A DNA stretch of 29,060 nucleotides, from the NCBI RefSeq assembly GCF_000485595.1, contig NW_014577151.1:14729-43788 (forward strand), written 5' to 3'. Position numbers and translations under genes: made by a program. Every line of letters begins with the position of its first letter. Positions within the stretch are counted from its first letter, which is position 1. The notes beneath the pieces are model-generated. The model saw only the letters and a list, made by a program, of their open reading frames with translations. It ran no database searches and had not been told where the DNA came from. Below, in pieces: positions 4,150 to 26,190 of this stretch. Origin of the DNA: Priapulus caudatus (Eukaryota > Priapulida > Priapulimorpha > Priapulimorphida > Priapulidae).

Positions 4150-5214
4150 GAGTGTCTAGTCTTACCTGTTTCGTCGTCGCGTATCATCTGACACGGCGAC
4201 CGATGAGGGTATATTTGCATTCGTCGCCGCTCCACGAGTTCCCGCACGCCCCCTAATGCACTGTGGGCTGTTTTAACTGTCTGTCTGTAGACCAGACTTT
4301 TCCGTCCTTTAGAAATATTACTGATTTTTTTTTGAACTTGGGGAAAATGAAATTTATAATTTTCTTACAATTTTCTTCTGGATCCGCACTTTTCGGCTCC
4401 GCCATGCTAATCACCCGTCGCGGGTGAACGTTGTCCATAATGTTCGTGCGATCAAATCGTTTACTGGCGACGCGGCTGTGCATTGAGATGCGGCCTGCGT
4501 TCTCTTGGCAAGTTTTCAATGGCGCGAGGCGAGAGCGAGTGAAACAAAGGGAGGCGCAGCGAGCTCGGCGAGGGGCGCATTAGCTGGGTTGCAACTCGGT
4601 CCAATGCACATATAGAAGTCGTGTGCGCGCGGATTCAATTGCCTGCTGGTGTAGGCGTTTTCGTGCTGATGTTTTTTCAGTTCAAGTGGCGAGGCCTTTT
4701 ACTAAAATCTCGTCACTGTGGTAGAGCTGGTCGTTCAGCAGCGTAGTGATCAAAAGGAACGGTTATTTGAACTTTCTCTTGGGAGGTCGACGGAAAAAGA
4801 GGATATCATTTTGCCAAGCGATAACCAAGACAGAATAAAAAATTGTTAGTCATAATTCTCTCATGCATCTAATCCTAATCATGTCTTAAAGTAGTTTCAA
4901 AATGCTGTTTAATCATGGCTCATTACCTGGATAATTTGAATTAATAAATAAAGTTTCGCCTACAACATAAACCTACAGCCTTTAGAATGTTGGTTGTACC
5001 TGTTGTTACATGTTTTACACAACCTGCTCACTAAAGAAATGTTAAAAAATATGTTCCGGAGACTTGAAACATGTGTCCGTGTGACGGCGTGATAAGTGAT
5101 TAGACTATTGAGCGAGATTGTCTCAGCACATGATAGAGTCAGATTCAAGTGGTTAATCGTCGGTCGCGTGGCAACAAGACATCTAACGCTGGAGCGTGTA
5201 TTTTGTTGCGCCAA

Positions 5215-5419
5215 GACCAAACGAGCTTAAGTGTAGAGGGCTGACTGGGCCCGCGACGCTACGCCTCACTGCCCGCAGGCCTATCCGTGTCGTGCTCGCC
5301 GACTGCTCAGCGGCTCGCCACCACTGGTCGGCCGACGTCAAGGCCCCACCTCAGTTCCTCCAGCTCGTGGTCACCTGCGGCACCTTTCACTGCTCATCAC
5401 ACAACACCGATGGCTCAAC
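5215..5419 (+). pseudogene. CCDC142: CCDC142 exon b, degraded first copy
   Basis: Corresponds to exon b at 14465-14631 but is about 205 nt instead of 167. Recognisable pieces are ACGAGCTTAAGTGTAGAG, CTCGCCACCA, TGGTCGGCCGACGTCAAGGCC and CAGTTCCTCCAGCTCGTGGTCAC. Multiple insertions break the frame. The acceptor TTCGCAG has become TTGCGCCAAG, and the donor CTCAAGGTGTGT has become CTCAACGTGGTG, so neither splice site is intact. The whole surrounding intron shows the same insertion-rich difference, so I think the damage lies in the sequence data and not in the gene, but it could also be a true decayed copy. Confidence 0.7.
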
Positions 5420-6117
5420 GTGGTGGAGATGGCATGCCGGTAATGCACACGCGCCGAGTCCAACCCTTACTGCAGAAGCCCCCACGCTGCGCCCAATTTA
5501 CTGAAACAGTCTACTAAGCGTTTACTAGCTACTAAGTGTCTCTAACAGTGAAACATTCAAGTCTACAAAAGGTCTACAGGCTAGGGCACCCCGACCTGCT
5601 GGAGGCTACAGTCCTATAGGTAGCGGCTAACTACCGACTACTAAAGTGCCTACAAAGTACTAAGTCGTCGTAACAACGTAAAGTCTAGCAGTAGTCTAAA
5701 GTCTCTTGCAAGCGACGTTGGCTGCAAGATGAACGTTGGTCGCTGCACGTATGATCGGCATGTGTTTTAGTTGGGGACAGAATTTAAACCTGCTAACAGA
5801 CATGCCTCTAAAGAGTAACCGTCTGTTATACGGGCTTCTTAGCATTGCTCCTGAGTGGGAGTTTTACGGGGATCCTGTTATCAGACATGGAATATCGTAT
5901 CTAGTATAAGGAGAATTCGCCGTTGATTTGAGGCCATATTTACGGTGAAGCCCCTTCTATAGAAGCGGTCGGCGGTGTCTATACAGGCGACTCTCCGGGT
6001 TTCGGCCGTAAGAGTGTGGTACAGATTAACTGAGGCCTATCTCGTCTGATAGTGCTGGAATGAGAGCGTATTTATCAGGCGTGCGCTTATTGTTCCGACA
6101 ACCGTTAGTAACAATTT

Positions 6118-6132
6118 CAGGGGCGGATCCAG
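6118..6132 (+). mobile_element. Possible transposon terminus CAGGGGCGGATCCAG, copy 1
   Basis: The same terminus-like 15-mer is present at 15252-15266 in the clean copy. Words of this form are familiar as ends of non-autonomous DNA transposons in marine invertebrates; that is from memory. No inverted partner was found nearby, so the element is at best a fragment. Confidence 0.3.
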
Positions 6133-6689
6133 AGGGTTTGGGTGACCAGTTTATCCCATCATGTTCTTCTGCGCTAGGGGAGGTTCCGGGGGCTGCCCCC
6201 GGGGAATTTTTCTTTTAAAATTAGGTGTATATTTTTGGTGGCATTCTGGTGAAGTTTTGGAGGCTTGTACGGTCTTCTGGAAACTGGTGGCAAACCGGAC
6301 CTAAATAGCGGCGCCTTGATGTGTTGGGACAGGATAACCTAGATATTTACCTGGTCTTCACCTATTCTAACGCATGGTAAAGCGCTGCATGCGAAGAATG
6401 CAGAAGCAACGGTGATTTTTAGAGAGGCCTGCCATTATTAACATTTAAATGAATTAGCTTCTTCTAAAATTGTTATTTTTAGTTTTCAAAAAAATGTTAT
6501 CTGAACTGCTGACTCAAGATCTACTCATTTATAAGACATTCTAGCTCTGAACAGGGTAATCCTTCTCGGCACGCGTCTTGCTCCTGCGTCACCAGGGTGG
6601 ACGCCGGCTGTAGCGCTGTCGTGCTTGTTTCATACGTAGCGAACACGAAGTCCCACTGCACTTTGATGCGTGTGCGAGACGGAATAGAC

Positions 6690-6945
6690 GATTTCTCCTC
6701 CTCCTCCTCCTCCTCCTACTCCTGCCCCTCCTCCTCGGCTGCCATCCGTCCTTCTCCGTCTCCCTCTCCCTGGCCTCGCTTGCTCTGCTTCCTCCTCTGC
6801 CCTCCTCGTCTACTTCCTCCTCCTGAGGCCGTCGCTCTTCTCCTCGCTGCCCGTGACCTCTTCCCGTCGCTCCTCCTCCTGCCCCTTCTCTCGCTCTTCC
6901 TGCCCTGCCCCTGCCCCTCCCTCTTCCTTCTCGCTGAGACGCTGG
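6690..6945 (+). repeat. CTCC polypyrimidine tract before exon c'
   Basis: Runs of TCCTCC, CTGCCCCTCC and CTTCCTCC end about 40 bases before the acceptor at 6986. This is the noisy counterpart of 15764-15978. The 297-codon frame that crosses it is low-complexity translation. Confidence 0.85.
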
Positions 6946-6986
6946 TCGTTTTCTTGGTTTCTTTATCCCCGTGCGCGCACCCGCAG

Positions 6987-7200
6987 ATGCTGGTCTGCAA
7001 CGTGAACCGACGACTCTTCTATCTGCGGCCTAGGCCAAGCGTACACAAGCTGGCAGCTCAGGCTCGACGCAGCTGTCCTGACTCGGGCAGTGCCGCCGCC
7101 CCAGGCCCTGGCGCTGCAGATCGCGTCGTGCTGCAACATCGCACGTCGACGTCGGCTCTGGCAAGCAGCTGCACGACGGGCGACGTCCCACCGCTGCACG
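6987..7200 (+). pseudogene. CCDC142: CCDC142 exon c, degraded first copy
   Basis: Counterpart of exon c at 16018-16209, 214 nt instead of 192. The acceptor CACCCGCAG and the opening ATGCT plus AACCGACGACTCTTCTATCT are kept, so the first residues still read NRRLFYL. After that, insertions and substitutions shift the frame. The end reads GCTGCACG|GTTTGT in place of GCTGCAG|GTTTGT. The 28-bp minisatellite follows at once, as in the clean copy. It cannot encode the exon as written. Sequencing error is my preferred explanation because the flanking introns are inflated to the same degree. Confidence 0.75.
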
Positions 7201-7432
7201 GTTTGTTTCGTGTCCCCGTCGGCCCCCGCGGCAACCGAGCCGGTGTTTTTTCGGTCACGGCCTGGCACCAACGCGTTAGTTTTGTCGCCTGGCAACCGAG
7301 CGTTTGGTTTTGTTGCCCCCTGGCAACCGAGCATGTGTCTATCGTCGCCCTGGCAACTGAAGCTATTTGCTTTTGTCCACCACGACAACCGAGGCGTTTG
7401 TTTCGTCGCCCTGGCAGCCGAACGGTCACGCA
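7201..7432 (+). repeat. 28-bp X-box minisatellite, noisy first copy
   Basis: Counterpart of 16210-16410. Recognisable units include GTCGCCTGGCAACCGAGCGT, GTTGCCCCCTGGCAACCGAG and GTCGCCCTGGCAACTGAAGC. The spacing is irregular because of single-base insertions, but the number and order of units agree with the clean copy. Confidence 0.8.
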
Positions 7433-7649
7433 TCGCAAATTGCACGCCAGAAATGGACCGGCAGCGAACGGGGTCAGATATCGTTCGTAGACGCGCACGG
7501 CGACCAGACCGGCGGCCGTATTGGCTCACTAGCTGGCTTGACCTCGGCTTTGGGAACATCAATTCCTCGGCGAACGCAACTTGCGGGAGAGGCGGAAGGG
7601 GGGTGCTACCAATTTCCCGCTGGCGTACATGATTGATGGCTGAGAGGCA

Positions 7650-7724
7650 CGCGGAAGGGGAGGGGAGAGGAGAAGGGAGAAAGGAAGGGTTTAGAAGGGA
7701 AGGGAGGAAGGGGAGGGGGGAGAT
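7650..7724 (+). repeat. GGAAGGG polypurine tract
   Basis: A run of GAAGGGGAGGGGAGAGG-type sequence, nearly pyrimidine-free, downstream of exon c'. It is complementary in composition to the CTCC tract upstream of the exon and corresponds to 16606-16690 in the other copy. Confidence 0.85.
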
Positions 7725-8904
7725 ACCCAATCACTGCCATTATTCCTGTAAGGAAATGTTCTAAGTTAGTAAGGCACGCGGGTCGGTTCTTACATGTGAG
7801 TGTGGATGTATGTGTGGCAGGTCTAGTTGATAGCAATATATTGCATCGCTAAAATCAGCTTTGATAGCTATTGATGGTAATACTTGACACCAGGGATGCC
7901 TAATAAGCTCGCAGGAGCCGCGCACCCAGTTGGAACGGCGATAGTGGATCCTGGCTGCACGAGTTCCGCCCCACGTCCGAAACACGTCTTTCCCCATTTT
8001 TTCCCATGAGAATGGCTAAACAGCATCCCGTAGATTGACAGGCGGGCACTGTTGGCACACGTGAAGCCTGGCATGCGTTGATTCTAGGCAATTAGTGGAC
8101 GAATAATTGAGTAGTATGGAAACGACAAATCGACGCGCCGCGACCAGGCGCCCCGGAATGTGGGCGGTCCGCCGCCGGGTGCGTGCGAATTGTCTAGTCC
8201 TGGCGGTTGACTGGAATGTATGCCCGGTATTTAGCCCCCATGTGCGGTTCGAGAATTTTTTGCGCCGGTTAGGGGGCTGTTTTCCCACACTTCGGTAAAG
8301 CGGGCCCGCCGCGGGAGAAAATAGGTGCCCCCCTTTACAAAGCTATCCGCAAGTACAGCCCTCGGGATTGTTCAAAAGTCAAGCCTGCGCCCGCAGTAAG
8401 GCCGCCCCTTACGGGCCCTGCGCATTCTTTCCACTTGTTCTGCAGACATCCACAATAGGGGGTAGGGCTCCGGCTAGGACCTTCTCATCTGGTCGCATGC
8501 ATAGGGCGGGTGGGCATCTTTTTCCATTGTGTAATGCAAGTAGGTTGGTGGTATGTCTTCAATTGTGTCTGCAATGGGGGTAGGGTTTTCCCAATGGTGC
8601 CAGTTCGCCTTTGGGGGCCTAATCTCATTTTGTGTAGTGAGAGAGGCGCGACGCCGTGGGGGTAATACCGGGCATATACTTAGTGACGCCCCCCGGGTTT
8701 TTCTATCCTTCCGTCCACCGCCCAAACATGCCGCTGGTGCGTTTTGATCAGAGTGGCCGTGGGGAAACGTTAACTCTAGCCACGAGTTACCTTCGCTCGC
8801 TTTCTTCACTGCCCTTTCTTACCCCGGTCTTCGGGGCCCCTTCCCGCCGTGGAGTTGGTGAGACGGAGTCGTAACCAGGCTCGCTCGGCGTTACATGTGC
8901 ATTC

Positions 8905-10495
8905 GTGAGCATCTAGCATCGTACTTGCTACTTCGATACATCTACAATCTACAATCTACATCTAGCGTCTGCCTCTACATCTACACCTAGCATCTCCGTA
9001 ATCTAGCATCTCATGCTGAACATCTACTACTCCTAACACCTACATCTCCTACTTCTAACATCTACATTGCTACAATCTACTCTACCTTCTACTTCTACAA
9101 TCTACATGCTAACATCTAGATCTACAGTCTACATTTACATCTGCATCTAAGACATCTACATCCTAATGACATCTACATCTACATCCTACATCTACATCTA
9201 CACTCTAGCATCTGCATCTGCATCTACATCTAACATGCCTACATCTATCTAGACAGTCTCCATCTTACATCACATCTACCATTAACATGCTACGATCTAC
9301 ACTAACTCCTACATGTAGCAGTCTACGATCTACATCTTTACATTTCAGTCAGGTTTTCAGGTTCGTATTCTGGGTCCTATGTTCCGAGTCGCTACATCTA
9401 CATACGTACTGTGTACGTCGGTGTAGATTAGTCTGATGTCTAGGACTATTGTAGAATCATTAGGGTAGATGCATCTACATACAGAATTGTAAGATGTTAA
9501 GATGTAGATCGTGATGTAGCATGTAAGATGTACGTAATGCACGCAGATTGGGATCAAAATGTAAGATTGTGACTAGCCAAATGTAGATGATAAGACGTCG
9601 ATAGATAACAGATTTCATGAAGCTTAGACTCGCTCGAGCATTAGTGTTAAGATGTAGAAGTAGATGTAGATGTAGGATGTGAGCTGGTAGAATCGCTTAA
9701 CACGATCGTAGATGTATGGTGTAGATACTTAGTAATGTATACATCGATTGTAAGATCGTGTCTGTAGCATGCTAGATTGTCCCCGCCGACTAGTAGATGC
9801 TACTGACTGTACGATGCACACAGATAGACCAGATTACCACCTACCGCGTGTAGACTGTAAGATCGTAGATGGTAATGTACCGACACTGTCGTAGACTGGG
9901 ATGCGTAGCACTGTAGATTGTAGATGCAGATGTCAAATTGAGGAGTAGATGTTGAGCCGCATGGGGTAGGTGTCATGTATGGACTAGACCGTAGACGGAC
10001 CAATCTAAGTAGATGTAACATCTACAGTTACTGCTAATGTAGACATTGTGCTGTAGGAAGCTAGGGGTGTGAGGCAGTCTTGTATAGAGGTGATTCGATG
10101 TCGATATGCTAAGAATGTAGATTAGAGTGTAGGTGTAGATGTAGCATGCACTGACGTGAGTGTACGACCTCGTAGAGTGTCGATGGTATGACTCATAGTA
10201 CGATCTACAGAGGTAAGCAGTGTACACCTGTAATTAGTAGTACTCTACAGTCTACATCTACACTACATCGTAGCATGCTACATCTACATTCTCAGCCTAT
10301 ACTGCGTATTCATCCTACACCTACACCTACGATCTACACCTACGTCTACATTCTACATGTACATCTAGTCATGTTACAGGTCTAGCATCGTACATCTACA
10401 TCTTAACATCTACCATGGTCTACATCTACACGCTATCACGCACACTACGCCTACAACTACTAGTCCTCTAGGGCATCCTAGCACCTACCTCTCTA
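8905..10495. repeat. ACATCT hexanucleotide array with strand switches
   Basis: A degenerate (ACATCT)n array. It reads ACATCT on the + strand from about 8905 to 9350, switches to AGATGT (the complement) from about 9380 to 10015, then returns to ACATCT until about 10495. The sequence is full of irregular single-base changes. The counterpart at 17690-18530 is in one orientation only. A read that folds back on itself would produce such switches. Confidence 0.85.
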
Positions 10496-10509
10496 CGAAG
10501 TCTTAGACG

Positions 10510-11424
10510 CGTCATGACCTTTTGGTTCCTTGCCGTGCGGAAAGGAATGCGTCTAACCACTGTAACTACTTCACCGACACGTGTTTGCAGTAGGGTGGGG
10601 AGTGTGTAGTCGTTTCAATAGAATATCTTGCCGCAATCAATTCGTCCATGGTGGGTTCGTATCTACCTCAAACTATCCTTGTATAGAGCTTGGTCTGTCT
10701 TGAACCCTCTGGCGCACTGCCGCTGCCTCTTGCGCCCTGCCTCCTTTTGCCTCCCCTGGACCGGTTCCCGGCGCCTCACTCTTGTGGTGTTTTTGCGCGT
10801 GGCCGACTGGGGGGGGTGTGGCGGGTTCCTGCGGGGTTCTCGTGCTTTGATTTGGCGCTACGGGGCGTGAATTGTGGCTGGAATTGTGTTTTGTGCGGGG
10901 GGCCTCTTTCCAGCGGTACAGCGCGCTTTCAGTCCGTGTCGGACACTGGCCGTTCGGCCTTTCGCCCGCTCCTGGGGTCACTACCGGCCCTGCCGCCGTC
11001 TAGTAACCTGCACCACGCGAAAGAGAGTAAGAAATATCGGCAAGAACGCCGAGCGACGCAATCGGCTGGGTCGTGTTGTCGTTTCATCTACTCATTATCG
11101 TCAGCTAGGGTTGGGCTAAAATGAAGGCATGCGCGCCCCGCCAGGCCCCTTCACGTGTGCAACAGTGGCCCCTGTCAATCTACGGGGATGTTTTTAGATT
11201 CTCATTGGGCAAAATGGGGAAGATGGTTTCGGGTTGCCGTTGGGGGCTCGTGGCCCGTCCTCTGTCGTTTCCGCCGTGCGCTGCTCTTGGCGTTTTCTTC
11301 GTTGTGTCTCTATCATTCGTCCCTGACTGTCTCTGTCTCTCGCCTATCTATTGACGGGTGTTCTGCATTTCTTCCGGCGTAGATGGGTGCTGGGTTTCCT
11401 CCCTTCTCCTTCCCTCGTAACCTT
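10510..11424 (-). repeat. Inverted, A-poor copy of the right end of the duplicon
   Basis: Reverse complement of roughly 16650-17600. Clear anchors are GTTCCTTGCCGTGCGGAAAGG near 10525, CGACGCAATCGGCTGGGTCG near 11053, CTTCACGTGTGCAACAGTGG near 11149, CTGTCAATCTACGGGGATG near 11172 and the TTTCCTCCCTTCTCCTTCCC end at the gap. Between the anchors, T, C and G positions align while many A positions of the other copy are replaced. For example, 11221-11340 holds only 5 A in 120 bases. It stops exactly at the N gap. No gene is supported here. Confidence 0.75.
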
Positions 11425-11890
11425 NNNNNNNNNNNNNNNNNNNNNNNNNNNNNNNNNNNNNNNNNNNNNNNNNNNNNNNNNNNNNNNNNNNNNNNNNNNN
11501 NNNNNNNNNNNNNNNNNNNNNNNNNNNNNNNNNNNNNNNNNNNNNNNNNNNNNNNNNNNNNNNNNNNNNNNNNNNNNNNNNNNNNNNNNNNNNNNNNNNN
11601 NNNNNNNNNNNNNNNNNNNNNNNNNNNNNNNNNNNNNNNNNNNNNNNNNNNNNNNNNNNNNNNNNNNNNNNNNNNNNNNNNNNNNNNNNNNNNNNNNNNN
11701 NNNNNNNNNNNNNNNNNNNNNNNNNNNNNNNNNNNNNNNNNNNNNNNNNNNNNNNNNNNNNNNNNNNNNNNNNNNNNNNNNNNNNNNNNNNNNNNNNNNN
11801 NNNNNNNNNNNNNNNNNNNNNNNNNNNNNNNNNNNNNNNNNNNNNNNNNNNNNNNNNNNNNNNNNNNNNNNNNNNNNNNNNNNNNNNNNN
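11425..11890. other. Assembly gap (466 N)
   Basis: Undetermined bases. By comparison with the second copy, this is where exon d and its flanking introns should lie. Open frames running through the Ns are meaningless. Confidence 1.
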
Positions 11891-11968
11891 GTGCGTGCGT
11901 GCGTGTGTGCGTGCGTGCGTGCGTACGTGTGTGCGTGCGTGCGTGTGTGCGTGCGTGCGTGTGTGTGT
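11891..11968 (+). repeat. GTGC/GT microsatellite
   Basis: Repeats of GTGCGTGC and GTGTGTGT leading into TAACAGCAATGCTTGC, which is the branch-point and acceptor region of the truncated exon e copy. It is the counterpart of 19650-19815. Confidence 0.9.
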
Positions 11969-11995
11969 AACAGCAATGCTTGCTTGCTTGTGCAG

Positions 11996-12052
11996 ACATC
12001 CCCGTTACACAGAGTGGGTACATCGAGCAGGCGGTGCAGGAGCTGCTACAGC
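11996..12052 (+). pseudogene. CCDC142: Truncated duplicate of CCDC142 exon e (first copy)
   Basis: The first 57 nt of exon e (ACATCCCCGTTACACAGAG to CTGCTACAGC) with its acceptor region TAACAGCAATGCTTGCTTGCTTGTGCAG, lying 163 bp before the full exon. After CTGCTACAGC the sequence passes directly into GTGTGTGT instead of CCGTGG. A segment made of GT array, acceptor and exon start was therefore duplicated in tandem and cut off by the next GT array. The acceptor looks functional. If used, the reading frame runs into Cys/Val-coding GT repeats and the full exon e would then be out of frame. Confidence 0.85.
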
Positions 12053-12136
12053 TGTGTGTGTGTGTATGTACGTACGTGTGTGTGTACGTACGTGTGTATG
12101 TACGTACGTGTGTATGTACGTGCGTGTGTGTGTATA
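12053..12136 (+). repeat. GT/GTAC microsatellite between truncated and full exon e
   Basis: GTGTGTATGTACGTACGTGTG-type repeat, conserved in type and position at 19900-19982. Its GTATGT and GTACGT words resemble splice donors. Confidence 0.9.
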
Positions 12137-12158
12137 ACAGCAATGCTTGCTTGTGCAG

Positions 12159-12336
12159 ACATCCCCGTTACACAGAGTGGCTACATCGAGCAGGCGGTGC
12201 AGGAGCTGCTACAGCCCGTGGTAGACGCCACCAGCAAGCTGCCAATGGAAGCACAGATCACTGCTCTCAGCATAGCTGTAGTCGCGCTGTGCGAGGCGTG
12301 GACCGCCTTCATACTCAAGGAACGCGTCCGCTTCAG
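12159..12336 (+). CDS. CCDC142: CCDC142 exon e (intact, first copy)
   Basis: A 178-nt exon. The acceptor is GCTTGTGCAG at 12158, with a plausible branch site TAAC about 25 nt upstream; the donor is CAG|GTGCGC at 12337. It starts with two bases of a codon (the G from exon d plus AC gives Asp) and ends after two bases (AG, completed to Ser by exon f). Landmarks are SGYIEQAVQELLQPVVDATS, then MEAQITALSIAVVALCEAW and FILKERVRF. This helical segment with a conserved Trp and an RFS-LHGA junction is, from memory, the most recognisable part of the CCDC142 C-terminal region (Pfam CCDC142). The copy at 20012-20189 differs by small indels. Confidence 0.88.
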
Positions 12337-13031
12337 GTGCGCACACTAGTACTGGTGCCGCTGCCTCTGCAGCTGCCGAATAATCCTAATAATGTATAAT
12401 TAATATCGTATATTGACATTAGCATAGCTGATGTATATTAGCGTTTCACTGTGTCTTTGCTGCAGCCTGCACGGAGCGCGTTAGCTGTCACTGTCTTATA
12501 TTAACATTATTATTATAACTATTAAAGGGATACAACACCCTAGATTTTTAGAGTATATTATGATAGTAAGTGCATAAATAATAGCATATACCTAGAAATT
12601 TCTATAATCATTCATTCACATTTGTCGTAAAACAACAGTGAGTTTCGAAATCTTTATTTTTGGCCGCTGACATGACACCCCGCGATTGTGCTGCCATCCT
12701 GACAAAGTTGCACTTTAGACCAAGGGCTTATCACAAAATTGCAATTATATTTATGCCTAACTGCTAATAAGAAACATCCTCAGTCTGTAGCCTGCAGCCG
12801 AAAAATTGTGATGCGCAACTTTGAAAGCAGATGGGCTAGTAGTGGCGCCACCATTGTTGTGAGCAACGATACAGCCGTTAGTTTTAAAACATTTTGTTTT
12901 ATTTCTAATGAATATTGAACAGTGAAATTTTTTATGTAGCGTAATTTAAACACATTTTAATTGAAAATATGCAAAGAACCTGGGGTCATGTGTGCCTTTA
13001 ATTATTAACATTGTGTCTGTGCACCCTTCAG
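12337..13031 (+). other. Intron e-f with a possible MITE fragment
   Basis: No exon is seen. From 12523 the intron holds TTAAAGGGATACAACACC, a word of the kind that begins many small non-autonomous elements, followed by AT-rich sequence. No inverted partner was found. The same intron recurs at 20190-20904 with about 2-3 % extra bases. Confidence 0.4.
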
Positions 13032-13237
13032 CCTTCACGGAGCGAGTCAGCTTGCTGTGGACGTCGCCTACGTGCGCACGTGGCTCGGCCGCCTCACTGA
13101 CCTTGACCATGAAGCCATGCAGAGCTTGCAGTCGCTCGAGATCTTCAAGTATCTGAACGGGGCCGTACGTCTGCTGCTGCGGCAGCCGTGTAAGAAGCGC
13201 GGCGGCGATCATCGCAAGGACGTCAGCGACGATATCA
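13032..13237 (+). CDS. CCDC142: CCDC142 exon f (intact, first copy)
   Basis: A 206-nt exon with acceptor CACCCTTCAG at 13031 and donor ATCA|GTGAGT at 13238. The first base completes Ser from exon e, giving RFS-LHGASQLAVDVAYVRTWL. Further on come DHEAMQSLQSLEIFKYLNGA and VRLLLRQP, then a basic, polar tail KKRGGDHRKDVSDDI. The order FSLxGAxQL, then a helix, then a LxxLxIFxxLxGAxxxLLxQP motif, matches the C-terminal half of vertebrate CCDC142 as I remember it, and this is the strongest single piece of evidence for the identification. It ends in phase 1, compatible both with the last exon at 21677 and with another exon b. Confidence 0.9.
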
Positions 13238-13277
13238 GTGAGTGTTGGTTGGCAGTCAGTGTCTCTGTAGCGAGCTG

Positions 13278-13500
13278 TGTGTGTGTGTGTGTGCGGTCCG
13301 TCGACGGAGTTTATGGCGGTCGTGCTCGATCGTGTCGTGTGTTTACTATGATGTTTGGGTTATCGTATGTTATTATATCTATTCTACATTGTTATATGTA
13401 CTCTATACATTATGATATATGTTTATGTATACATTATGATATACTTGTATGTGTACATTATGATATATGTGTATGTGTACAATACATTTACATCCTAATA
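13278..13500 (+). repeat. GT run and 24-bp ACATTATGATA repeat at the duplication junction
   Basis: A GT run lies at 13278-13296. A 24-bp unit, ACATTATGATATATGTTTAT plus GTAT, starts at 13407, 13431 and 13455. The second copy of this intron (after 21111) diverges from this one at about 13400, and duplicon copy 2 begins at about 13524. The tandem-duplication junction therefore lies in or beside this repeat. Confidence 0.7.
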
Positions 13501-14464
13501 CATCTCGAGCTGCCGTTTATGTCTGAGTGTCTAGTTTATGTTTCGTCATCGGTATTCTGACGACCGGGGCATGATGAGGGCATATTGCATCGTCGCGTCA
13601 CAGTCCGAGCCGCGTTAATCCATGGGCGTTAACTGTCCGTCTGTAGACAGATTTCCGTCTTTAGAAAAATTATGATTTTTTTTTTGGAATTGGGGAAAAA
13701 TTGAAATTGATAATTTTTTACAATTTTTCCGGTCCCCACTTTTCCGGTCCCCATGCTAATCCGTCGCGGGTGACAGTTGTCCATAATGTGTCGATAATGT
13801 TTATGCGAGCGCGTGCATTGAGATGCGCTGCGTCTCTGCAAGTTTTCAATGCGCGAGAGCGAGAGCGAGTGAACAAGGGAGCGAGCGAGCTAGCGAGGGG
13901 CGCATTAGCTGGGTTCGCAACTCGGTCATACGTATAGAAGCGTGTTCGCGCGGATCAATGCCTGCCTGTGTAGCGTTCGTGCTGATGTTTTCAGTTCAAG
14001 TGCGAGGCTTTTACTAAATCTCACGTGGGTAGACTGTCATTCAGAGCTAGTGATCAAAAGGAGGTTATTTGAACTTTCTCGAGTCGAGGAAAAAAGAGGA
14101 ATATAATTTTGCCAACATAACCAACAGAATAAAAAATGTTAATACTAATTCTTCATCATCTAATCCTAATCATGTTTAAAAAGTTTTCAAAATGCTGTTT
14201 AATATGGATCATTATGGATAATTTGATTAATATAATTTCGCTAACATAACTAACAGCTTTAAATTTGTTGTAACATGTTGTTCATTATTAAAACTGTCAC
14301 TGAAATGTAAAAAAATATGTTCCGGAACTTGAAACAATGTGTCGTGTGACCGTGATAAGTGATTAGACTATTACGAGATTGTTCAGAATGTAGAGTAGAT
14401 TAAGTGGTTAATGTCGAGTCGCCGTGCAACAAGACATCTAACGCTGCGTGTATTTTGTTCGCAG

Positions 14465-14631
14465 ACCAAGAGCTTAAGTGTAGAGAGCTGCTGCCGCTGC
14501 TACTGCCCAGCCTATCGTGTGTGCTCGCCACTCTCACGCTCGCCACCAACTGGTCGCGAGTCAAGGCCACTCAGTTCCTCAGCTCGTGGTCACTCGGACC
14601 TTTCCTGCTCATCACACAAACCGATCTCAAG
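14465..14631 (+). CDS. CCDC142: CCDC142 exon b (intact)
   Basis: A 167-nt exon with acceptor TTTTGTTCGCAG at 14464 and donor CTCAAG|GTGTGT at 14632. It starts in phase 1 (the A from exon a plus AC gives Asn) and ends in phase 0 after Lys. Landmarks are QELKCRELLPLLLPSL, SCVLATLTLATNWSRVK and FLSSWSLGPFLLITQTDLK. These are leucine-rich amphipathic helices with no transmembrane signal that I would trust. GC-rich codons match exons c to g. Exon b is the first exon of the duplicated block; exon f also ends in phase 1, so splicing from f of one copy to b of the next keeps the frame. The degraded counterpart is at 5215-5419. Confidence 0.85.
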
Positions 14632-14699
14632 GTGTGTAGATGGTATCGGATGCACACCGGCGAGTCCCAACCTTACTCAGAGACCCCCACCCCGCCAGT

Positions 14700-14880
14700 T
14701 TACTAAACAGTCTACTAACGTTTACTAAGTACTAAGTGTCTAAAGTGAAACTTAAGTCTACAAAAGGTCTATAGCTAGGCAACGACTTAGGCTACAGTCT
14801 ATAGTAGGCAACTACAGACTACTAAAGTCTACAAAGTACTAAGTCTAACGTACAACTAAAGTCTACAGTAGTCTAAAGTT
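14700..14880 (+). repeat. AGTCTAC-rich degenerate repeat
   Basis: Many scattered copies of AGTCTAC, GTCTATAG and CTACTAAAG words right after exon b. The same stretch appears at about 5510-5700 in copy 1. There is no strict period. Confidence 0.55.
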
Positions 14881-15251
14881 AGGCAACGACGTTGGCTGCA
14901 GATGACGGTTGGTCGCTGCAGTATGAGTCGAGCATGTGTTAGTGGACAGAATAAATGCTAACAGACATCTCTAAAGAGTAAACGTCTGTCTATACGGGGC
15001 TTTTAGCATTGCTCCTGAGTGGGAGTTATACGGGGAATCCATGTTTATAGAATGGAAATCTATCTATAAAGGAGATTCCCTTGATTGACCCATATACGGT
15101 GAAGCCCCTTCTATAGAACGGTCGCTGTCTATAAAGCAGACTTCCAGGGTTTCCCTAGAGTGTGTACAGATGTAACTGTCTATCTGTCTGTAGTGCTGAT
15201 GAGAGCGTATTTATCACGTGCCTTATTGCTGACAACCGTTAGTAACAATTT

Positions 15252-15266
15252 CAGGGGCGGATCCAG
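15252..15266 (+). mobile_element. Possible transposon terminus CAGGGGCGGATCCAG
   Basis: It is followed by AGAGGGTTTGGGTG and then a GGGGGCATGCCCCCCGGGA palindromic stretch at about 15316. The word resembles ends of non-autonomous hAT-like elements (family memory, not checked). The opposite end is not seen. Confidence 0.3.
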
Positions 15267-15763
15267 AGGGTTTGGGTGACCAGTTTCCATATGTTCTTCT
15301 GCAGCTAGGAGGTCCGGGGGCATGCCCCCCGGGAATTTTTTTAAAATTAGGTTATATTTGGTGCATTCTGGTGAATTTTGAGGCTTGTGACCGGTTTCTG
15401 GAAACTGGTGCAAACCGGCCTAAATCCGCACTTGAATTTGTTGGGACAGATAACTAGATTTACCTGGTCTTCTATTAATAAAGCATGTAAAGAAGCTGCA
15501 TGCAAGAATGCAAGAACGGTGATTTTAGAAAGCCACTCCATTATTTACATTTTATGAATTACTTTCTAAAATTTTATTTTTATTTTCAAAAAATGTTATC
15601 AACTGCTGACTCAAGATCAACTCATTTATAAGAATTCTAGCTCTGAAAAGTAATCTCTCGCACGCTCGCTCCTCGTTCACCGTGACGCCGCGTGTAGCGC
15701 TGTCGTCTTGTTTTCATCGTGCGAACACACTCACTTTAGATGCTGTCCGACGTGAATAGACGA

Positions 15764-15978
15764 TTTCTCCTCCTCCTCCTCCTCCTCCTCCTGCCCCTCC
15801 TCCTCCTGCCCCTCGTCCTTCTCCGTCTCCTCTTCCTGCCTCGCTTCTTCCTCCTTCTGCCCCTCCTCTTACTTTTCCTCCTCCTGCCCGTCCTCTTCTT
15901 CCTCCTGCCCCTCCTCTTCCTCCTCCTCCTCCTGCCCCTCCTCCTGCTCTTCCTCCTGCCCCTCCTCTTCCTTCTCCT
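15764..15978 (+). repeat. CTCC polypyrimidine tract before exon c
   Basis: About 215 bases of TCCTCC, CTGCCCCTCC and CTTCCTCC units end some 40 bases before the exon c acceptor. It is far longer than a normal polypyrimidine tract. The Leu/Pro-rich frame that starts at 15740 is its translation, and so is the Arg-rich frame on the other strand. Confidence 0.9.
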
Positions 15979-16017
15979 AACGCTGTCTTCTTGTTTTTTT
16001 ATCGTGCGCACCCGCAG

Positions 16018-16209
16018 ATGCTGTCTGACGTCAACCGACGACTCTTCTATCTCGGCCAGCCCAACGTACACAAGCTGCACTCGGAGCTCGACCAGCTCCT
16101 GCTCGGCAGTCCGCCGCCAGGTGGCGCCTGCAACGCCGTCGTGCTGCAGACGATTCGCAGCGTCGACGTCGTCTGGCAGCAGCTGCACGACGGAGCGTCC
16201 GCGCTGCAG
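16018..16209 (+). CDS. CCDC142: CCDC142 exon c (intact)
   Basis: A 192-nt exon (64 codons) with acceptor GCGCACCCGCAG at 16017 and donor CTGCAG|GTTTGT at 16210, phase 0 at both ends. The peptide starts MLSDVNRRLFYLG, continues with VHKLHSELDQLLLGS and ends SVDVVWQQLHDGASALQ. The internal ATG is not a start; it follows Lys of exon b. The DVNRRLF and LDQLLLGS features fit the helical middle of CCDC142. The exon is bracketed by a polypyrimidine tract upstream and, downstream, by the 28-bp X-box minisatellite, which begins on its donor, and then a polypurine tract. The degraded counterpart is at 6987-7200. Confidence 0.85.
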
Positions 16210-16410
16210 GTTTGTTTGTTTCGTCGCCCCGGCAACCGAGCGTTTTTTTCGTCACCCTGGCAACCAAGCATTTGTTTTGTCGCCCTGGCAACCGAGCGTT
16301 TGTTTTGTTGCCCTGGCAACCGAGCATTTCTATCGTCGCCCTGGCAACCGAGCATTTCTTTTGTCACCCCGACAACCGAGCGTTTGTTTCGTCGCCCTGG
16401 CAACCGAACG
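16210..16410 (+). repeat. 28-bp minisatellite of RFX X-box-like motifs
   Basis: Seven tandem units. The core GGCAAC (or GACAAC) falls at 16231, 16259, 16287, 16315, 16343, 16371 and 16399, exactly 28 bp apart. The unit is CGTTTGTTTCGTCGCCCTGG plus CAACCGAG. Each holds a 14-bp motif of the form GTCGCCCTGGCAAC. Six of seven match the X-box consensus GTNRCC(N0-3)RGYAAC bound by RFX factors; the fourth, GTTGCCCTGGCAAC, is an inverted repeat around CT, and the sixth deviates (GACAAC). The array starts at the exon c splice donor and ends at about 16410. Confidence 0.9.
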
Positions 16411-16605
16411 GTCACCATCGCAAATGCCACGCACAGAAATGGACCGGCAGACGAACGGGGTCAGATATCGTTCGTAGACGCGCGCACGGACGGCGGCGTA
16501 TTGGCTCACTGCGGCTTGACTCGCTTTTGAAATCATTTCCTCGAGCGAACGCAACTTGCGGGAGAGGAGGAAGGGGGGTCTAAATTTCCCCTGGTACATG
16601 ATTGT

Positions 16606-16690
16606 GGCCTGAGGCAGCCGGAAGGGAGGGGAGAGGGAAGGGAGGAAGGGAAAGGGTTAGAGGGAAGGGAGGAAGGGGAGCGGGGGGAGA
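16606..16690 (+). repeat. GGAAGGG polypurine tract after exon c
   Basis: Nearly pure purine sequence (GAAGGGAGGGGAGAGGGAAG and similar). It is complementary in composition to the polypyrimidine tract on the other side of exon c, about 630 bases away. Confidence 0.85.
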
Positions 16691-17323
16691 TACCCAATCA
16701 CGCCATTATCTCTGTAAGGAAATGTCTAATTAGTAAAGGCACGCGGTCGGTTCTTAATGTAGTGTGATGTATGTTGCCGGTCTATTGATAGCAATATATT
16801 GATCTATCAGTTTGATATATTGATGGTATATTGAACAGATGCTAACAACTCCATAGCGCGCACGTTGAACTGTAAATATGATCCTGGCTGCACGAGTTCC
16901 CCACGTCACGAAACACGATCTTTCCCCATTTTTTCCCGATGAGAATCTAAAACATCCCCGTAGATTGACAGGCGGGCACTGTTGGCACACGTGAAGCCTG
17001 GCATGCTTGATTAGCAATTAGTGACGATAATTGAGTAGATGGAAACGACAACACGACCAGCCGATTGCGTCGCCGTCTGCGAATTTCTATCCTCGGGGGG
17101 GTTACTATGTATGCCGGTATTACCCCATGTGCGTTCGAAATTTTTGCGGGTTAGGGGGCTGTTTTCCAACTTCTAAAGCGGGCCCGCGCGGGAGAAAATA
17201 GGCCCCCCTTTACAAAGCTAATCCCGCAATAAGCCCTCGGGATCGTTCAAGTCAAGCACTGCGCCCGCAGTAGGCCCCCCTTACGGGCCCCCTCCATTCC
17301 CTCCACTTGTCTGCAAGACATCA

Positions 17324-17450
17324 CAATAGGGGGTAGGGTCCGGGTAGGACTCTTTCATTGTGCATGCAATAGGGGGTGGGATATTTTCATTGTGTATGCA
17401 ATAGGTGGTGGTATTCTTCAATTGTGTCTGCAATAGGGGGTAGGGTTTTC
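17324..17450 (+). repeat. Short tandem repeat CAATAGGGGGTGGG...TTCATTGTGTATG
   Basis: CAATAGG(G/T)GG occurs at 17324, 17367, 17399 and 17431 (periods 43, 32 and 32), with TTTTCATTGTGYATG between copies. A noisy counterpart is at 8450-8590. The clustered G-runs are short. Confidence 0.7.
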
Positions 17451-17689
17451 CAATGTGCAGTTCGCACTAGGGGGCCTATTATTTTTAGTGAGAACGCACA
17501 TGGGGTAATACCGGCATATATAGTGACCCCCCCCCCCCGGGTTTATATCCTTCCGTCACGCAAGGAACATGCGCCGTGGCTGCGTTTGATAGCAGTGGCA
17601 GTGGACAACGTATAAGCTCTAGCCAACGAGTTAACCTTCCGCTTCTCACGACGTGAACGCAGTCAGTAAGGCTGGTCGGGTTTACAATG

Positions 17690-18530
17690 TAACATCTACA
17701 TCTACGATCTACTTCTACTTCTACATCTACATCTAGGCATCGTACATCTACGTCTGGCATCTACATCGTTGCACCACATCATCTACATCTCATCTACATC
17801 TCATCTAAGCTCTACCATCATACTTCTACATCTACATCTACACCTACATCTGTACTTCTTACTCTACATCACATCTACATCTACATCTACTCTACATTTA
17901 ACATCTGCATTAACTCTAGCATCCTTACATCACAGTCTACATCTACATTAACATCTACAATGCTACATCTACATCTGCATCTTGCAGATCCTACAGATCT
18001 AACATCTACATCTACAATTACATCTACAATCACCTCTAACATCTACATCTACATCTCAACCTACATGCTACATCTACATTCTACATTACATCTACAATCA
18101 TACATCGTACTTCTAACATCTTACAGTCTACATCTACTTCTCCTTTCTACCTCTACACTCTACATCTTACATCTATTTGACGCATCTAAGCACATCTACA
18201 TCATCACATCACATTCTACATCTGAACTACTCTGCATCTACATCTACATCTACATCTACATTCTAACACCTACACTACACCTACATCTAGCATCTAACAT
18301 CTACACCTTACATCTACAGTTACATCTCATCTACACCTCATCTACATCTATACACCTACACCTACATCTACACCTACGCTCTACATCTAAACACATTACA
18401 TACTTACATCTACATCTAACATCCTACATCTACATCTACATCTACATCTACACCTAACCTACACTCCTTACACCTAACACTACATCTACCTCTACACCTT
18501 ACATCTACATCTACATCCTACGTCTAACCG
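17690..18530 (+). repeat. ACATCT hexanucleotide array, single orientation
   Basis: (ACATCT)n read throughout on the + strand, with frequent single-base irregularities and some CACCTA and CATCTG variants. Frames across it give His/Leu/Thr/Ser-rich nonsense. It lies in the intron between exons c and d. Confidence 0.9.
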
Positions 18531-18624
18531 TCCTTAACACGTTTCAGTAGTCTATCAATCGATATCAATCAATCAATCGTAATATCGATATCAATATTGA
18601 TAGACTCCTGCGTTTCTCACACAG

Positions 18625-18739
18625 ATGCTATCCAGTACGCTCATCAGACTGTTCTCGGCCGCCTGCAAGCAGAGAGCCACCGAGTACTTTCAAGCCGGAA
18701 TGCCCACCGGCAAAGTCTGGCGCCGCAAGGGCAACAGTG
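18625..18739 (+). CDS. CCDC142: CCDC142 exon d (only copy in the window)
   Basis: A 115-nt exon with acceptor GCGTTTCTCACACAG at 18624 and donor AGTG|GTACGT at 18740. It starts in phase 0, as exon c requires, and ends in phase 1; its final G plus AC of exon e makes Asp. The peptide starts MLSSTLIRLFSAACKQRATE and contains YFQAGMPTGKVWRRKGNS. The aromatic and basic stretch ending in WRR just before the exon e helix fits what I recall of CCDC142. No first-copy counterpart is visible; it should lie in the N gap or in the sequence replaced by the inverted segment at 10510-11424. Confidence 0.8.
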
Positions 18740-18810
18740 GTACGTAGATGGGTTCGTCTCTCTCGCTTGCATTCACTCACTCGTTATAGTTTGTGAGTCC
18801 GGGAAGCCGT

Positions 18811-18850
18811 GTGTGTGTGTGTGTGTGTGTGTGTCACAGTGTGTGTGTCA

Positions 18851-18889
<39 letters not shown>

Positions 18890-18980
18890 TGCGTGTGTGT
18901 GTGTGTGTGTGGTGTGTGTGTGTGTGTGGTGTGTGTGTGTGTGTGTGCGCGCGCGCGCTCGCGTGTGCGTGTGTGTGAGA
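18811..18980 (+). repeat. Long GT microsatellite downstream of exon d
   Basis: (GT)n interrupted by CACA and GGTG words and ending in GCGCGCGCGCTCGCGTG, which is alternating purine-pyrimidine throughout and therefore prone to Z-DNA. Frames in it are Cys/Val repeats on + and Thr/His repeats on -. Confidence 0.9.
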
Positions 18981-19276
18981 GTTCGCGCGGGAATGTTCGG
19001 TGAAAGAGAGAAGAGTGGTTGTGCGGTGAAAACGCCGCGTGTTTTGTGTGTTGGACGTGTGATGTCTGTGTTGGGCGTGTTTTGTGTGGTGGGCGTGTTT
19101 TGGGGGTCGGTACGTCCGTGCGTTATGCTGAAGATGAATGCTGGCAGTAAAGTGGTTGTTGGTGGTGGTGGTGCATCGACCCACACTCCAGGCTGGTGAA
19201 ATGTCGCACAAGTGCTGATATCAATACATAGAAAAATCCATTTCTTGTGTTCTCAATGCTTTCTGTGTGTGGGGCG

Positions 19277-19323
19277 TGTGTGCGTGCGTGCGTGCGTGCG
19301 TGCGTGTGTGTGTACGTGTGTGT
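19277..19323 (+). repeat. GTGC/GT microsatellite
   Basis: (GTGC)n followed by GTGTGTACGTGTGTG. The stretch 19324-19645 beyond it is intron without recognisable features. Confidence 0.85.
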
Positions 19324-19649
19324 TGGGTAAATGGGGCTATTAGCAGTTTACACCCACCCACTGTAGGTGCCTCCTATTCATATTAAAATCATCTACAGGA
19401 TTTAAATTGCAATTCGATACTTGTAGTGTTGGGTGGGGGGGTGCCCCGCATTAAATACCAAACATTTTGAATAAGGTTGCCTTGGTACGGGGTTTGAACT
19501 GTATCGTTGACTTGTCACTAATCCTGTTGCTACTATGTAAACTACCATTATCACTAATCATGCGGCCAGAATGTAAGCTCTATTTCCTTGGGGATATTTG
19601 CATAATGCATGCATATTTTATTCATGTAATCATGTATTAACCCGTACGT

Positions 19650-19815
19650 TCTTATGTATGTGTGTGTGGGTGTGTGGGTGCGTGGGCGTATATGCGTGCG
19701 TGTGTGCGTGGCGTGCGTGCGTGCGTGCGTGCGTGGGTTGCGGTGCGCTGCGTGCGTGGGGGCGTGCGTGCGTGTGTGCGTGCGTGCGTGTGTGCGTGCC
19801 GTGCGTGTGTGTGTA
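19650..19815 (+). repeat. GTGC/GT microsatellite before the truncated exon e copy
   Basis: Counterpart of the array ending at 11968. It leads into TAACAGCAATGCTTTGCTTGC and the acceptor at 19843. Confidence 0.85.
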
Positions 19816-19843
19816 ACAGCAATGCTTTGCTTGCTTGTGGCAG

Positions 19844-19900
19844 ACATCCCCGTTAAACAGAGTGGCTACATCGAGCAGGCGGTGCAGGAGCTGCTACAGC
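19844..19900 (+). pseudogene. CCDC142: Truncated duplicate of CCDC142 exon e (second copy)
   Basis: The same 57-nt exon fragment as at 11996-12052, again cut at CTGCTACAGC by a GT array, 168 bp before the full-length copy at 20012. Its presence in both copies shows that this partial exon duplication is older than the large tandem duplication, or that both copies derive from one locus. Confidence 0.85.
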
Positions 19901-19982
19901 TGTGTGTGTGTGTGTATGTACGTACGTGTGTGTGTACGTACGTGTGTATGTACGTACGTGTGTATGTCGTGGCGTGTGTGTT
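19901..19982 (+). repeat. GT/GTAC microsatellite
   Basis: Counterpart of 12053-12136, with the same GTATGTACGTACGTGTG pattern and a few irregular bases. Confidence 0.85.
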
Positions 19983-20011
19983 GTAATAACAGCAATGCTT
20001 GCTTTGTGCAG

Positions 20012-20189
20012 ACATCCGGTTACACAGAGTGGCTACATCGGCAGGCGGGTGCAGGAGCTGCTACAGCCCGTGGTAGACGCCACCAGCAAAGCTGCCAATG
20101 GAAGCACAGATCACTGCTCTGAGCATAGCTGTAGTCGCGCTGTGCGAGGCGTGGACCGCCTTCATACTCAAGGAACGCGTCCGCTTCAG
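20012..20189 (+). pseudogene. CCDC142: CCDC142 exon e, second copy with compensating indels
   Basis: Same length (178 nt), acceptor and donor as 12159-12336. It has ACATCCGGTT for ACATCCCCGTT (one base fewer), ATCGGCAGGCGGGTG for ATCGAGCAGGCGGTG, and an extra A in CAGCAAAGCTG. The frame is shifted through the first third and restored at the third change, which would replace the SGYIEQAVQELL stretch. Both splice sites are intact. Surrounding intron differences are also mostly single-base insertions, so these look like consensus errors in a functional exon. The gene needs this copy or the one at 12159 to be sound. Confidence 0.75.
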
Positions 20190-20904
20190 GTGCGCACACT
20201 AGTATCGGTGCCGCTGCCTCTGCAGCTGCCGAATAATGCTTAATAATGTATACTTAATATCGTATATTGACATTAGCCTAGCTGATGTATAGTTAGCGTT
20301 TCAGCATGTGTCTTTGGCTGCAGCCTGGCACGGAGCGCATTAGCTGTCACTGTTTTATATTACCATTATTATTATAACTATTAAAGGGATACACACCCCT
20401 AAGATTTTTAGAGTATATTATGATAGTAGAGTGCATTAATAATAGCATATACCTAGAAATTTCTATATCATTCATTCACATTTGTCCGTAAACAACAGTG
20501 AGTTTCGAAATTCTTATTTGTGGCCGCTGACATGACACCCCGCGATTGTGCTGTGCCATCCTGACAAAGTTGCACTTTAGACCAGGGCTTATCACAAAAT
20601 TGCAATTATATTTATGCTATCTGCTAATAAAGAAACATCCTCAGTCCTGTAGCCTGACAGCCGAAAAATTGGTGATCCGCAACTTTGAAGCAGATGGGCT
20701 AGTAGTGGCGCCACCATTGTTGTGTAGCAACGATACAGCCGTTAGTTTTAAAAACATTTTGTTTTATATTTCTAAATGGAATATTGAACAGTGAAAATTT
20801 TTTATGTAGCGTAATTTTAAACACATTTTAATTGAAAATATGCAAAGAACCTGGGGTCATGTGGTGCCTTTAATTATTAACATTGTGTCTGTGCACGCCT
20901 TCAG

Positions 20905-21111
20905 CCTTCACGGAGCGAGTCAGCTTGCTGTGGACGTCGCTACGTGCCGCTGACGTGGCTCGGCCGCCTCACTGACCTTGACATGAAGCCGATGCAGAGC
21001 TTGCAGTCCGTCGAGATCTTCAAGTATCTGAACGGGGCGTACGTTCTGCTGCTGCGGCAGCCGTGTAGAAGCGCGGCGGCGATCATCGCAAGGACGTCAG
21101 CGACGATATCA
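20905..21111 (+). pseudogene. CCDC142: CCDC142 exon f, second copy with indels
   Basis: 207 nt against 206 in the copy at 13032-13237. Acceptor GCCTTCAG and donor ATCA|GTGAGT are kept. Differences include GTCGCTACGTGCCGCTGACG for GTCGCCTACGTGCGCACG, a lost C in CTTGACATGAAG, an added G in GCCGATGCAG, and a lost A in TGTAGAAGCG. They shift the frame at several points. The exon directly precedes the last exon of the gene, so if the sequence were right the encoded C-terminus would be lost. Consensus error is more likely. Confidence 0.75.
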
Positions 21112-21244
21112 GTGAGTGTTGGTTGCAGTCCAGTGTCTCTGTAGCGAGCTGTGTGGTGTGTGTGGTGTGCGGACCGTCGACGGAGTTTATGGCGTCGTGC
21201 TCGGATCGTGTCGTGTGGTTTACTATGATGTTTGGGTTAATCGT

Positions 21245-21430
21245 ATGTTATTTATATATATATTCTACATTGTTATATGTACGTCTATATGTATATATAT
21301 ATGAGAGATATACAATTATGTTATATATATATGTATTTTTATGTGTATTATTATATGCCTATATATATATATATATATATAAATAATATGTTATATTATA
21401 TGTATTGTATATTATATATATTATTATTGT
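21245..21430. repeat. AT/TATA microsatellites
   Basis: Runs of TATATATATG and ATATATATAT in the last intron. They begin where the two intron copies stop matching. Confidence 0.85.
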
Positions 21431-25829: not shown

Positions 25830-26190
25830 AGCCTGTTCTGTTAGCATCTATGACAAATACGACATACGCATATACGCTCTCCTATGACACTATTTGTCAT
25901 AGGAAGAATCTTCCTATGACAAATACGACATACGCATATACGCTCTCCTATGACACTATTTGTCATAGGAAGATTCTTCCTATGACAAATATTGTTGAAG
26001 GTGTGTTGTGCGCATCATAGGAGTGTAGGAGCGCTATTGTGAACGCAAGCAGTGAATTTCAGCTGTAAAGCGGAACGAAGTTGACTCGCCAATATTTGTC
26101 ATAGGAAGAATCTTCCTATGACAAATAGTGTCATAGGAGAGCATATATGCGTATGTCGTATTTGTCATAGATGCAAGCAGAACATGTTGG
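25830..26190. mobile_element. Nested fold-back element (MITE-like)
   Basis: The left arm holds two 66-bp tandem units (start words at 25848 and 25914), each ending in a 35-nt odd palindrome TATTTGTCATAGGAAG...TATGACAAATA (25891-25925 and 25957-25991). The right arm has the same palindrome at 26093-26127 followed by the inverted copy of the unit up to CGTATTTGTCATAGATGC near 26175. The unique centre is about 101 bp (25992-26092). The inverted match extends outward through GTTCTGTTAGCATC and GATGCAAGCAGAAC. CCATAAC lies on both sides (25823-25829 and 26191-26197), a possible target-site duplication. There is no coding sequence, so it is non-autonomous. Confidence 0.75.

What the first reader, a model, noticed from the sequence alone, without database searches (positions are those of the whole stretch)
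16210..16410. Intronic minisatellite made of phased RFX X-boxes right after a CCDC142 splice donor
Seven units at exactly 28-bp spacing each contain a 14-bp motif such as GTCGCCCTGGCAAC. Six fit the X-box consensus GTNRCC(N0-3)RGYAAC, and the unit GTTGCCCTGGCAAC has fully inverted half-sites. X-boxes normally occur singly in promoters of cilium genes. A homotypic array could act as an intronic enhancer, a sponge for RFX, or a nucleosome-phased platform. It is preserved in the noisy copy at 7201-7432.
Basis: partly seen in the sequence, partly recalled or inferred. Interest (0 to 1): 0.75.

Follow-up and report, generated by a model that had tools for sequence, protein, structure and literature searches.

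The report
Intronic minisatellite with RFX-like motifs
A short tandem repeat in an intron of a penis-worm gene carries, once per repeat, a sequence resembling the binding site of the RFX proteins that switch on cilium genes; it is most likely an ordinary repeat that happened to copy that sequence, with no evidence yet that it does anything.

Summary
The array is real: seven 28-bp units at 16214-16407, four bases into an intron of a CCDC142 gene, probably of Priapulus caudatus; six of seven units match GTNRCC-N2-RGYAAC. Shuffled units match in 90 of 400,000 cases, but the units are copies of one ancestor: one coincidence, not seven. The copy at 7201-7432 is the same allele in an insertion-rich duplicate, probably an assembly gap fill; it confirms the unit number, not conservation. 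Spacing is 2.67 helical turns, not phased. The motif's centre is atypical of this genome's X-boxes. The array is not unique: of 80 places with paired X-boxes, 48 are tandem arrays, 40 with an X-box in the consensus unit; about 25 (95% 10-52) are expected from repeat and X-box densities. A pooled test for motif preservation gives no robust signal once all loci, not only hand-picked ones, are used. Most unit differences are CpG transitions. Best reading: a neutral intronic minisatellite that captured a mediocre X-box. RFX binding, even methylation-dependent, is possible but unshown.

The parts
16018..16209 (+). CCDC142 exon ending CTGCAG before the donor
   Evidence: tblastn of P0001; PF14923 on the joined exons
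16210..18624 (+). intron that holds the array (donor GTTTGT at 16210)
   Evidence: P0001 residues 309/310 joined across it
16214..16407 (+). minisatellite, seven 28-bp units (6.9 copies by TRF)
   Evidence: TRF score 269 at period 28, 304 at period 84; units listed
16223..16236 (+). unit 1 X-box-like GTCGCCCCGGCAAC
16251..16264 (+). unit 2 X-box-like GTCACCCTGGCAAC
16279..16292 (+). unit 3 X-box-like GTCGCCCTGGCAAC
16307..16320 (+). unit 4 GTTGCCCTGGCAAC, inverted half-sites complete, matches on both strands
16335..16348 (+). unit 5 X-box-like GTCGCCCTGGCAAC
16363..16376 (+). unit 6 GTCACCCCGACAAC, one mismatch to the consensus
16391..16404 (+). unit 7 X-box-like GTCGCCCTGGCAAC
7201..7424 (+). 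second reading of the same array in the insertion-rich duplicate
   Evidence: alignment: 192 matches, 6 mismatches, 26 extra, 2 missing

Best explanation
An ordinary intronic minisatellite. A 28-bp stretch at the start of this intron, which contained a moderate X-box-like imperfect inverted repeat, was multiplied in tandem (slippage or unequal exchange: inferred). The units then drifted, largely by transitions at CpG (shown as a pattern; the deamination cause is inferred). The X-box consensus tolerates most of those changes because they fall on its degenerate positions. RFX proteins may bind some units in a test tube, but there is no evidence that the array is kept for RFX binding.
For: One independent match only, since units are copies. 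12 of 18 differences from the consensus are transitions at CpG, in either direction: 12 of 70 cells in the ten CpG-capable columns against 6 of 126 elsewhere, P 0.008, cells not fully independent. Motif columns vary about as often as spacer columns (4 of 14 against 6 of 14, P 0.69; fixed motif columns 1 of 8 against 9 of 20 others, P 0.19). Of 80 places with two same-strand X-boxes 14-74 bp apart, 48 are tandem arrays (40 with an X-box in the consensus unit), and the spacers of the 34 with period 28 or more are no more alike than shuffled ones, so X-box minisatellites recur. About 25 (95% 10-52) are expected from minisatellites in 29 kb of arbitrarily chosen sequence times single X-box density; other samples give 4, 62 and 67. 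Pooled over all usable arrays there is no robust motif preservation. The array's centre CT/CC is rare among genomic X-boxes: 4 of the 100 listed; units rank at the 15th-32nd percentile.
Against: Six of seven motifs are intact though the spacer varies. By columns rather than cells the CpG excess is not significant (6 of 10 against 4 of 18, P 0.10). Pooled arrays show a slightly lower change rate at non-CpG fixed positions in one version (0.070 against 0.087, P 0.04, 22 arrays; 0.061 against 0.084, P 0.02, in the 19 whose consensus is an X-box). The ten usable arrays among those I had picked by hand, mostly for many hits, show a strong effect (0.0125 against 0.082, none of 5000 draws lower), biased by that choice but not proven to be only bias. 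Pair loci exceed two control motifs even per single site (54 of 3355 against at most 4 of 1011, P 0.0015; a third control, set aside, does not fit this). The 40 or 48 arrays lie in the upper part of the expected range.
Confidence: 0.78

Rival explanations
1. A functional homotypic RFX platform: several RFX dimers bind the array and it acts as an intronic enhancer (or local sponge) for CCDC142 or a neighbour.
For: Six of seven motifs intact; RFX DNA-binding stretches are present in the genome; single X-boxes are 5.2 times commoner than the reversed control, 3355 against 649, and pair loci with gap 0-30 number 54 against 3.
Against: Atypical motif centre; no robust pooled constraint; mid-gene intron, whereas PMC5838959 (passages) places functional human X-boxes near transcription starts and calls distal ones likely exceptions; PMC2375033 (passages) found, with a very loose consensus, that an X-box upstream of a gene does not predict RFX dependence; spacing not helically phased.
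Confidence: 0.12
2. A methylation-gated RFX site cluster: with 5-methylcytosine standing in for thymine in GTCGCC, the CpG-bearing units would resemble complete palindromes and bind RFX best when the gene body is methylated.
For: Four of seven units carry a CpG in the left half-site GTCGCC, and the other three differ from it by a transition at that CpG; PMC3185043 (passages) states that MDBP is RFX1 and that sites with thymine in place of methylcytosine are bound without methylation; PMC8821070 (passages) predicts a full DNMT set and DNA methylation in Priapulus caudatus; one DNA_methylase match here, which does not tell the DNMT type.
Against: CpG observed/expected is 1.13 in 29 kb of arbitrarily chosen sequence and 1.31 in the array, so no sign of heavy methylation-driven loss; no methylation data; nothing shows binding.
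Confidence: 0.05
3. An RNA-level element: the repeats fold in the pre-mRNA, or supply decoy donors (GTTTGT follows GAGC in some units), and tune splicing at 16210.
For: The first unit lies 4 bases into the intron and several units repeat GTTTGT.
Against: Folding energy is ordinary (z -0.92, 32 of 200 shuffles fold as well); decoys lack the AG before GT; the database model skips the array cleanly.
Confidence: 0.04
4. A coding repeat retained as a longer exon, since the exon frame stays open to 16530.
For: Open frame 15760-16530 runs through the array.
Against: The database model excludes it; several frames are open here; 28 is not a multiple of 3. The read-through product has no Pfam match (second protein), but neither does the exon part within it, so that says little.
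Confidence: 0.01

Closest known systems
Minisatellites (VNTRs) in introns
   Same: tandem units of 10-100 bp with point differences and a higher-order 84-bp periodicity; minisatellites of period 18-74 run at 64 to 616 per Mb in four samples of this genome
   Different: unit happens to contain a 14-bp X-box-like inverted repeat
X-box promoter motif bound by RFX factors (DAF-19, dRFX, RFX1-8)
   Same: fits GTNRCC-N2-RGYAAC in 6 of 7 units
   Different: intronic, mid-gene, in a tandem array; centre CT/CC atypical of this genome's X-boxes; binding unshown
MDBP/RFX1 sites (methylation-dependent ones in mammalian genes; methylation-independent ones in viral enhancers and a c-Myc intron)
   Same: CpG in the half-site where T would complete the palindrome; one known site is intronic
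   Different: PMC3185043 (passages and reference titles) names a single site in the c-Myc intron and three in a viral enhancer, no tandem array; methylation here unknown

Membership tests
Minisatellite | head-to-tail copies of a 10-100 bp unit | tested here: met
   6.9 copies of 28 bp, 83% matches, no indels
Minisatellite | copy-number variation between individuals | not testable with these tools
   one genome only; both readings give seven units
RFX X-box | sequence fits GTNRCC-N0-3-RGYAAC | tested here: met
   6 of 7 units, all with N2
RFX X-box | near-palindromic inverted half-sites | tested here: inconclusive
   complete in unit 4 only; the other five matching units need one mismatch on the minus strand
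RFX X-box | position near a transcription start | tested here: not met
   for the database model only: the array follows residue 309 of 443, and residues 1-95 were not found in the window; an internal start is not excluded
RFX X-box | occupancy by RFX protein | not testable with these tools
   no binding data; RFX domain matches exist
RFX X-box | conservation in related species | not testable with these tools
   no relative of this genome is held
MDBP-type methylation-dependent RFX site | CpG methylated in vivo and needed for binding | not testable with these tools
   only indirect: DNMT prediction (PMC8821070, passages), CpG transitions

The most novel reading that the evidence does not exclude
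Priapulus caudatus carries dozens of independently arisen minisatellites that amplify an X-box, this one among them, as a recurrent, partly selected source of homotypic RFX clusters whose CpG-bearing half-sites could be switched by gene-body methylation.
Probability: 0.07. Interest if true: 0.6.

Novelty: new member of a known kind. Interest (0 to 1): 0.2.

Why it matters
If neutral, it is a caution: in a repeat-rich genome with many X-boxes, some minisatellites will carry any common motif, and identical units must be counted once. If functional, it would be a natural multi-site RFX array, useful for testing how RFX site number and CpG methylation set enhancer output, in an early-branching ecdysozoan. 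The paper searches for X-boxes in tandem or minisatellite form listed nothing of the kind; they cover an open-licence library only.

Tried and rejected
Rejected: independent weight for each unit (copies of one ancestor). Rejected: conservation by the noisy copy.

A selection test that first looked strong (non-CpG fixed motif positions 0.0255 against 0.079 for matched pseudo-motifs, none of 5000 draws lower, 16 of 28 arrays usable) was rejected because I had hand-picked 16 of the fetched loci, mostly for showing several hits. With all 80 pair places (48 tandem), the main version used 22 arrays, 0.070 against 0.087, P 0.04 (with CpG columns included 0.083 against 0.095, P 0.14); arrays with a period not divisible by three, 14 arrays, P 0.35; a broader version 34 arrays, 0.106 against 0.095, P 0.83; the 12 arrays not hand-picked went the other way, 0.135 against 0.093. 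The CCDC142 array is not among the 22 arrays of the main version, so this test says nothing of it directly. An earlier pooled count (28 arrays, partly hand-picked) gave 0.041 at fixed against 0.081 at spacer non-CpG columns; it carries the same bias.

Control motifs: reversed X-box 649 singles, 3 pair hits at 3 loci; a permuted palindrome 362 singles, 2 pair hits at one locus; the reverse of that, 1005 singles and 151 pair hits, which I left out of the locus comparison because the 100 listed are nearly all from one or two related dispersed repeat families (GAATCATTCGATTC or close variants with a short spacer). Had it been kept, pairs would not look special to the X-box.

Coding origin of the class: rejected for this array; some other arrays have periods divisible by three and long open frames, so part of the class may be coding. 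RNA folding: nothing. Literature for tandem or minisatellite X-boxes: no paper held all terms; one, on TET1 in prostate cancer by its title, not read. CCDC142: 24 papers hold the word; the titles and abstract starts of the 20 listed show none about its function.

Full report
What is there. The window lies in scaffold C91 (619,974 bases) of a 385-Mb genome. The protein search returns one relative, P0001, named by its source as Priapulus caudatus LOC106804840, on a contig of the same length; its segments map to this window, including stretches that look like assembly errors, so I take the genome to be P. caudatus. P0001 carries PF14923, and the joined exons of the window match CCDC142 with E 7.7e-49. 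The model splices Q309 to M310 from 16209 to 18625, so the GT at 16210 is its donor.

The array. From 16214 to 16407 there are seven 28-bp units without indels. Six match GTNRCCNNRGYAAC and unit 6 has one mismatch. Nine exact matches occur in the window against 0.09 expected: six of them are these units, one is the minus-strand reading of unit 4, one is in the duplicate at 7344 and one lies at 27042. Only 90 of 400,000 shuffled 28-mers hold the motif. So the resemblance is real, but it happened once and was copied.

The noisy copy. 4148-8794 repeats 13523-17639 at 80% identity with 278 mismatches and 662 gap bases, and 11899-13452 repeats 19743-21334 at 93%. Over 4148-7200 the left copy has 420 extra, 54 missing and 92 mismatched bases, the mark of uncorrected long reads (inference). 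In the second duplicated stretch the balance is reversed, 17 extra and 55 missing on the left, which fits gap filling around a misplaced small contig rather than gene duplication (inference). The array in the noisy copy aligns over the same seven units in the same order. It suggests that the number of units is right, and nothing more.

Drift of the units. Against the consensus there are 18 differences, 12 of them transitions at CpG, counting both directions; cells in CpG-capable columns change more often than others (12 of 70 against 6 of 126, P 0.008; by columns 6 of 10 against 4 of 18, P 0.10). The motif tolerates most of these because they fall at its N and R positions. Motif and spacer columns vary alike (P 0.69). 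CpG is not depleted in the genome sample (1.13), so heavy methylation is not indicated, although a DNMT set and methylation are predicted for this species (PMC8821070, passages).

A genome-wide class. GTNRCCNNRGYAAC occurs 3355 times, both strands, against 649 for the reversed motif. Two on one strand with a gap of 0-30 bases: 99 hits at 54 loci against 3 hits at 3 loci for the reversed motif; gap 31-60: 65 against 1. I examined 80 places from the 79 loci: 48 resolve as tandem arrays, of which 8 have a consensus unit that is not an X-box, and 32 do not resolve. Spacers of the 34 arrays with period 28 or more are no more alike than shuffled ones (top score 22 against 24), so these appear to have arisen independently; the shorter ones were not compared. 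The CCDC142 array is one of the 48. Minisatellites of period 18-74, simple-sequence ones left out, number 7 in 29 kb of readable sequence from 20 stretches that I chose at round coordinates; times single X-box density this predicts about 25 arrays with an X-box in the unit (95% 10-52); other samples gave 62 and 67 (the window; flanks of X-box loci) and 4 (RFX-gene loci). The observed 40 to 48 need no special process, though they are on the high side and the estimate is rough. One control motif formed more pair hits than the X-box, through dispersed repeat families.

Is the motif kept? I compared the decay of the eight fixed motif positions with pseudo-motifs of the same shape placed elsewhere in each unit, dropping one intact pair in each case. 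The first result, strongly in favour, came from a set enriched by my own picking. With all loci it shrinks to P 0.04 in one version, vanishes in others and reverses in the loci that were not hand-picked. I therefore claim no selection.

How good are the sites? Among the 100 genomic X-boxes listed (contigs C1-C11 only, palindromic sites listed twice) the centre is AT, GC, AC or GT in 73; the array has CT or CC, found in 4, and its units rank at the 15th-32nd percentile. The spacing is 2.67 turns, so neighbouring sites do not face the same way.

Mechanism. Shown: tandem copies of a unit carrying one X-box-like site, divergence rich in CpG transitions, position in an intron of the database model. 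Inferred: slippage or unequal exchange, little or no selection, at most weak or conditional RFX binding. RFX DNA-binding domain matches exist here, and thymine and methylcytosine can replace each other in RFX1/MDBP sites (PMC3185043, passages), so a methylation-gated platform stays open as a minor possibility.

Verdict. Observation confirmed; interpretation mostly not borne out; ordinary, with a mildly interesting genome-wide setting.

Noticed in passing
window 4148-13452 against 13523-21334: Two duplicated stretches in which the better copy seems to switch sides (left copy insertion-rich in the first, right copy longer in the second), with an N gap at 11425-11890: looks like a misplaced contig plus unpolished gap filling inside the CCDC142 gene.
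   Followed up: partly
window 20013-20240: The database model P0001 ends in a frame that differs from the CCDC142 frame read in the 11.9-12.4 kb copy, so the deposited protein end is probably an assembly frameshift.
   Followed up: partly
window 19843-19899 and 20013-20064 (also 11910-12215): An exon start (DIPV.QSGYIEQAVQELLQ or close variants) appears twice in tandem, period about 163 bp by TRF in the left copy.
   Followed up: no
window 25834-26184: Inverted repeat with 92-bp arms at 96% identity, and 66-bp direct repeats at 25848-25991, resembling a foldback or MITE-like element.
   Followed up: no
L055, L056, L057, L061, L062: Other X-box minisatellites (periods 39, 40, 40, 54, 70), picked by hand, with motif positions changing less than spacers; perhaps better candidates for functional RFX arrays than the CCDC142 one.
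   Followed up: partly
G000 genome-wide: A dispersed repeat family of about 21 bp, GAATCATTCGATTC with the spacer ACGCATC and variants, on many scaffolds.
   Followed up: no
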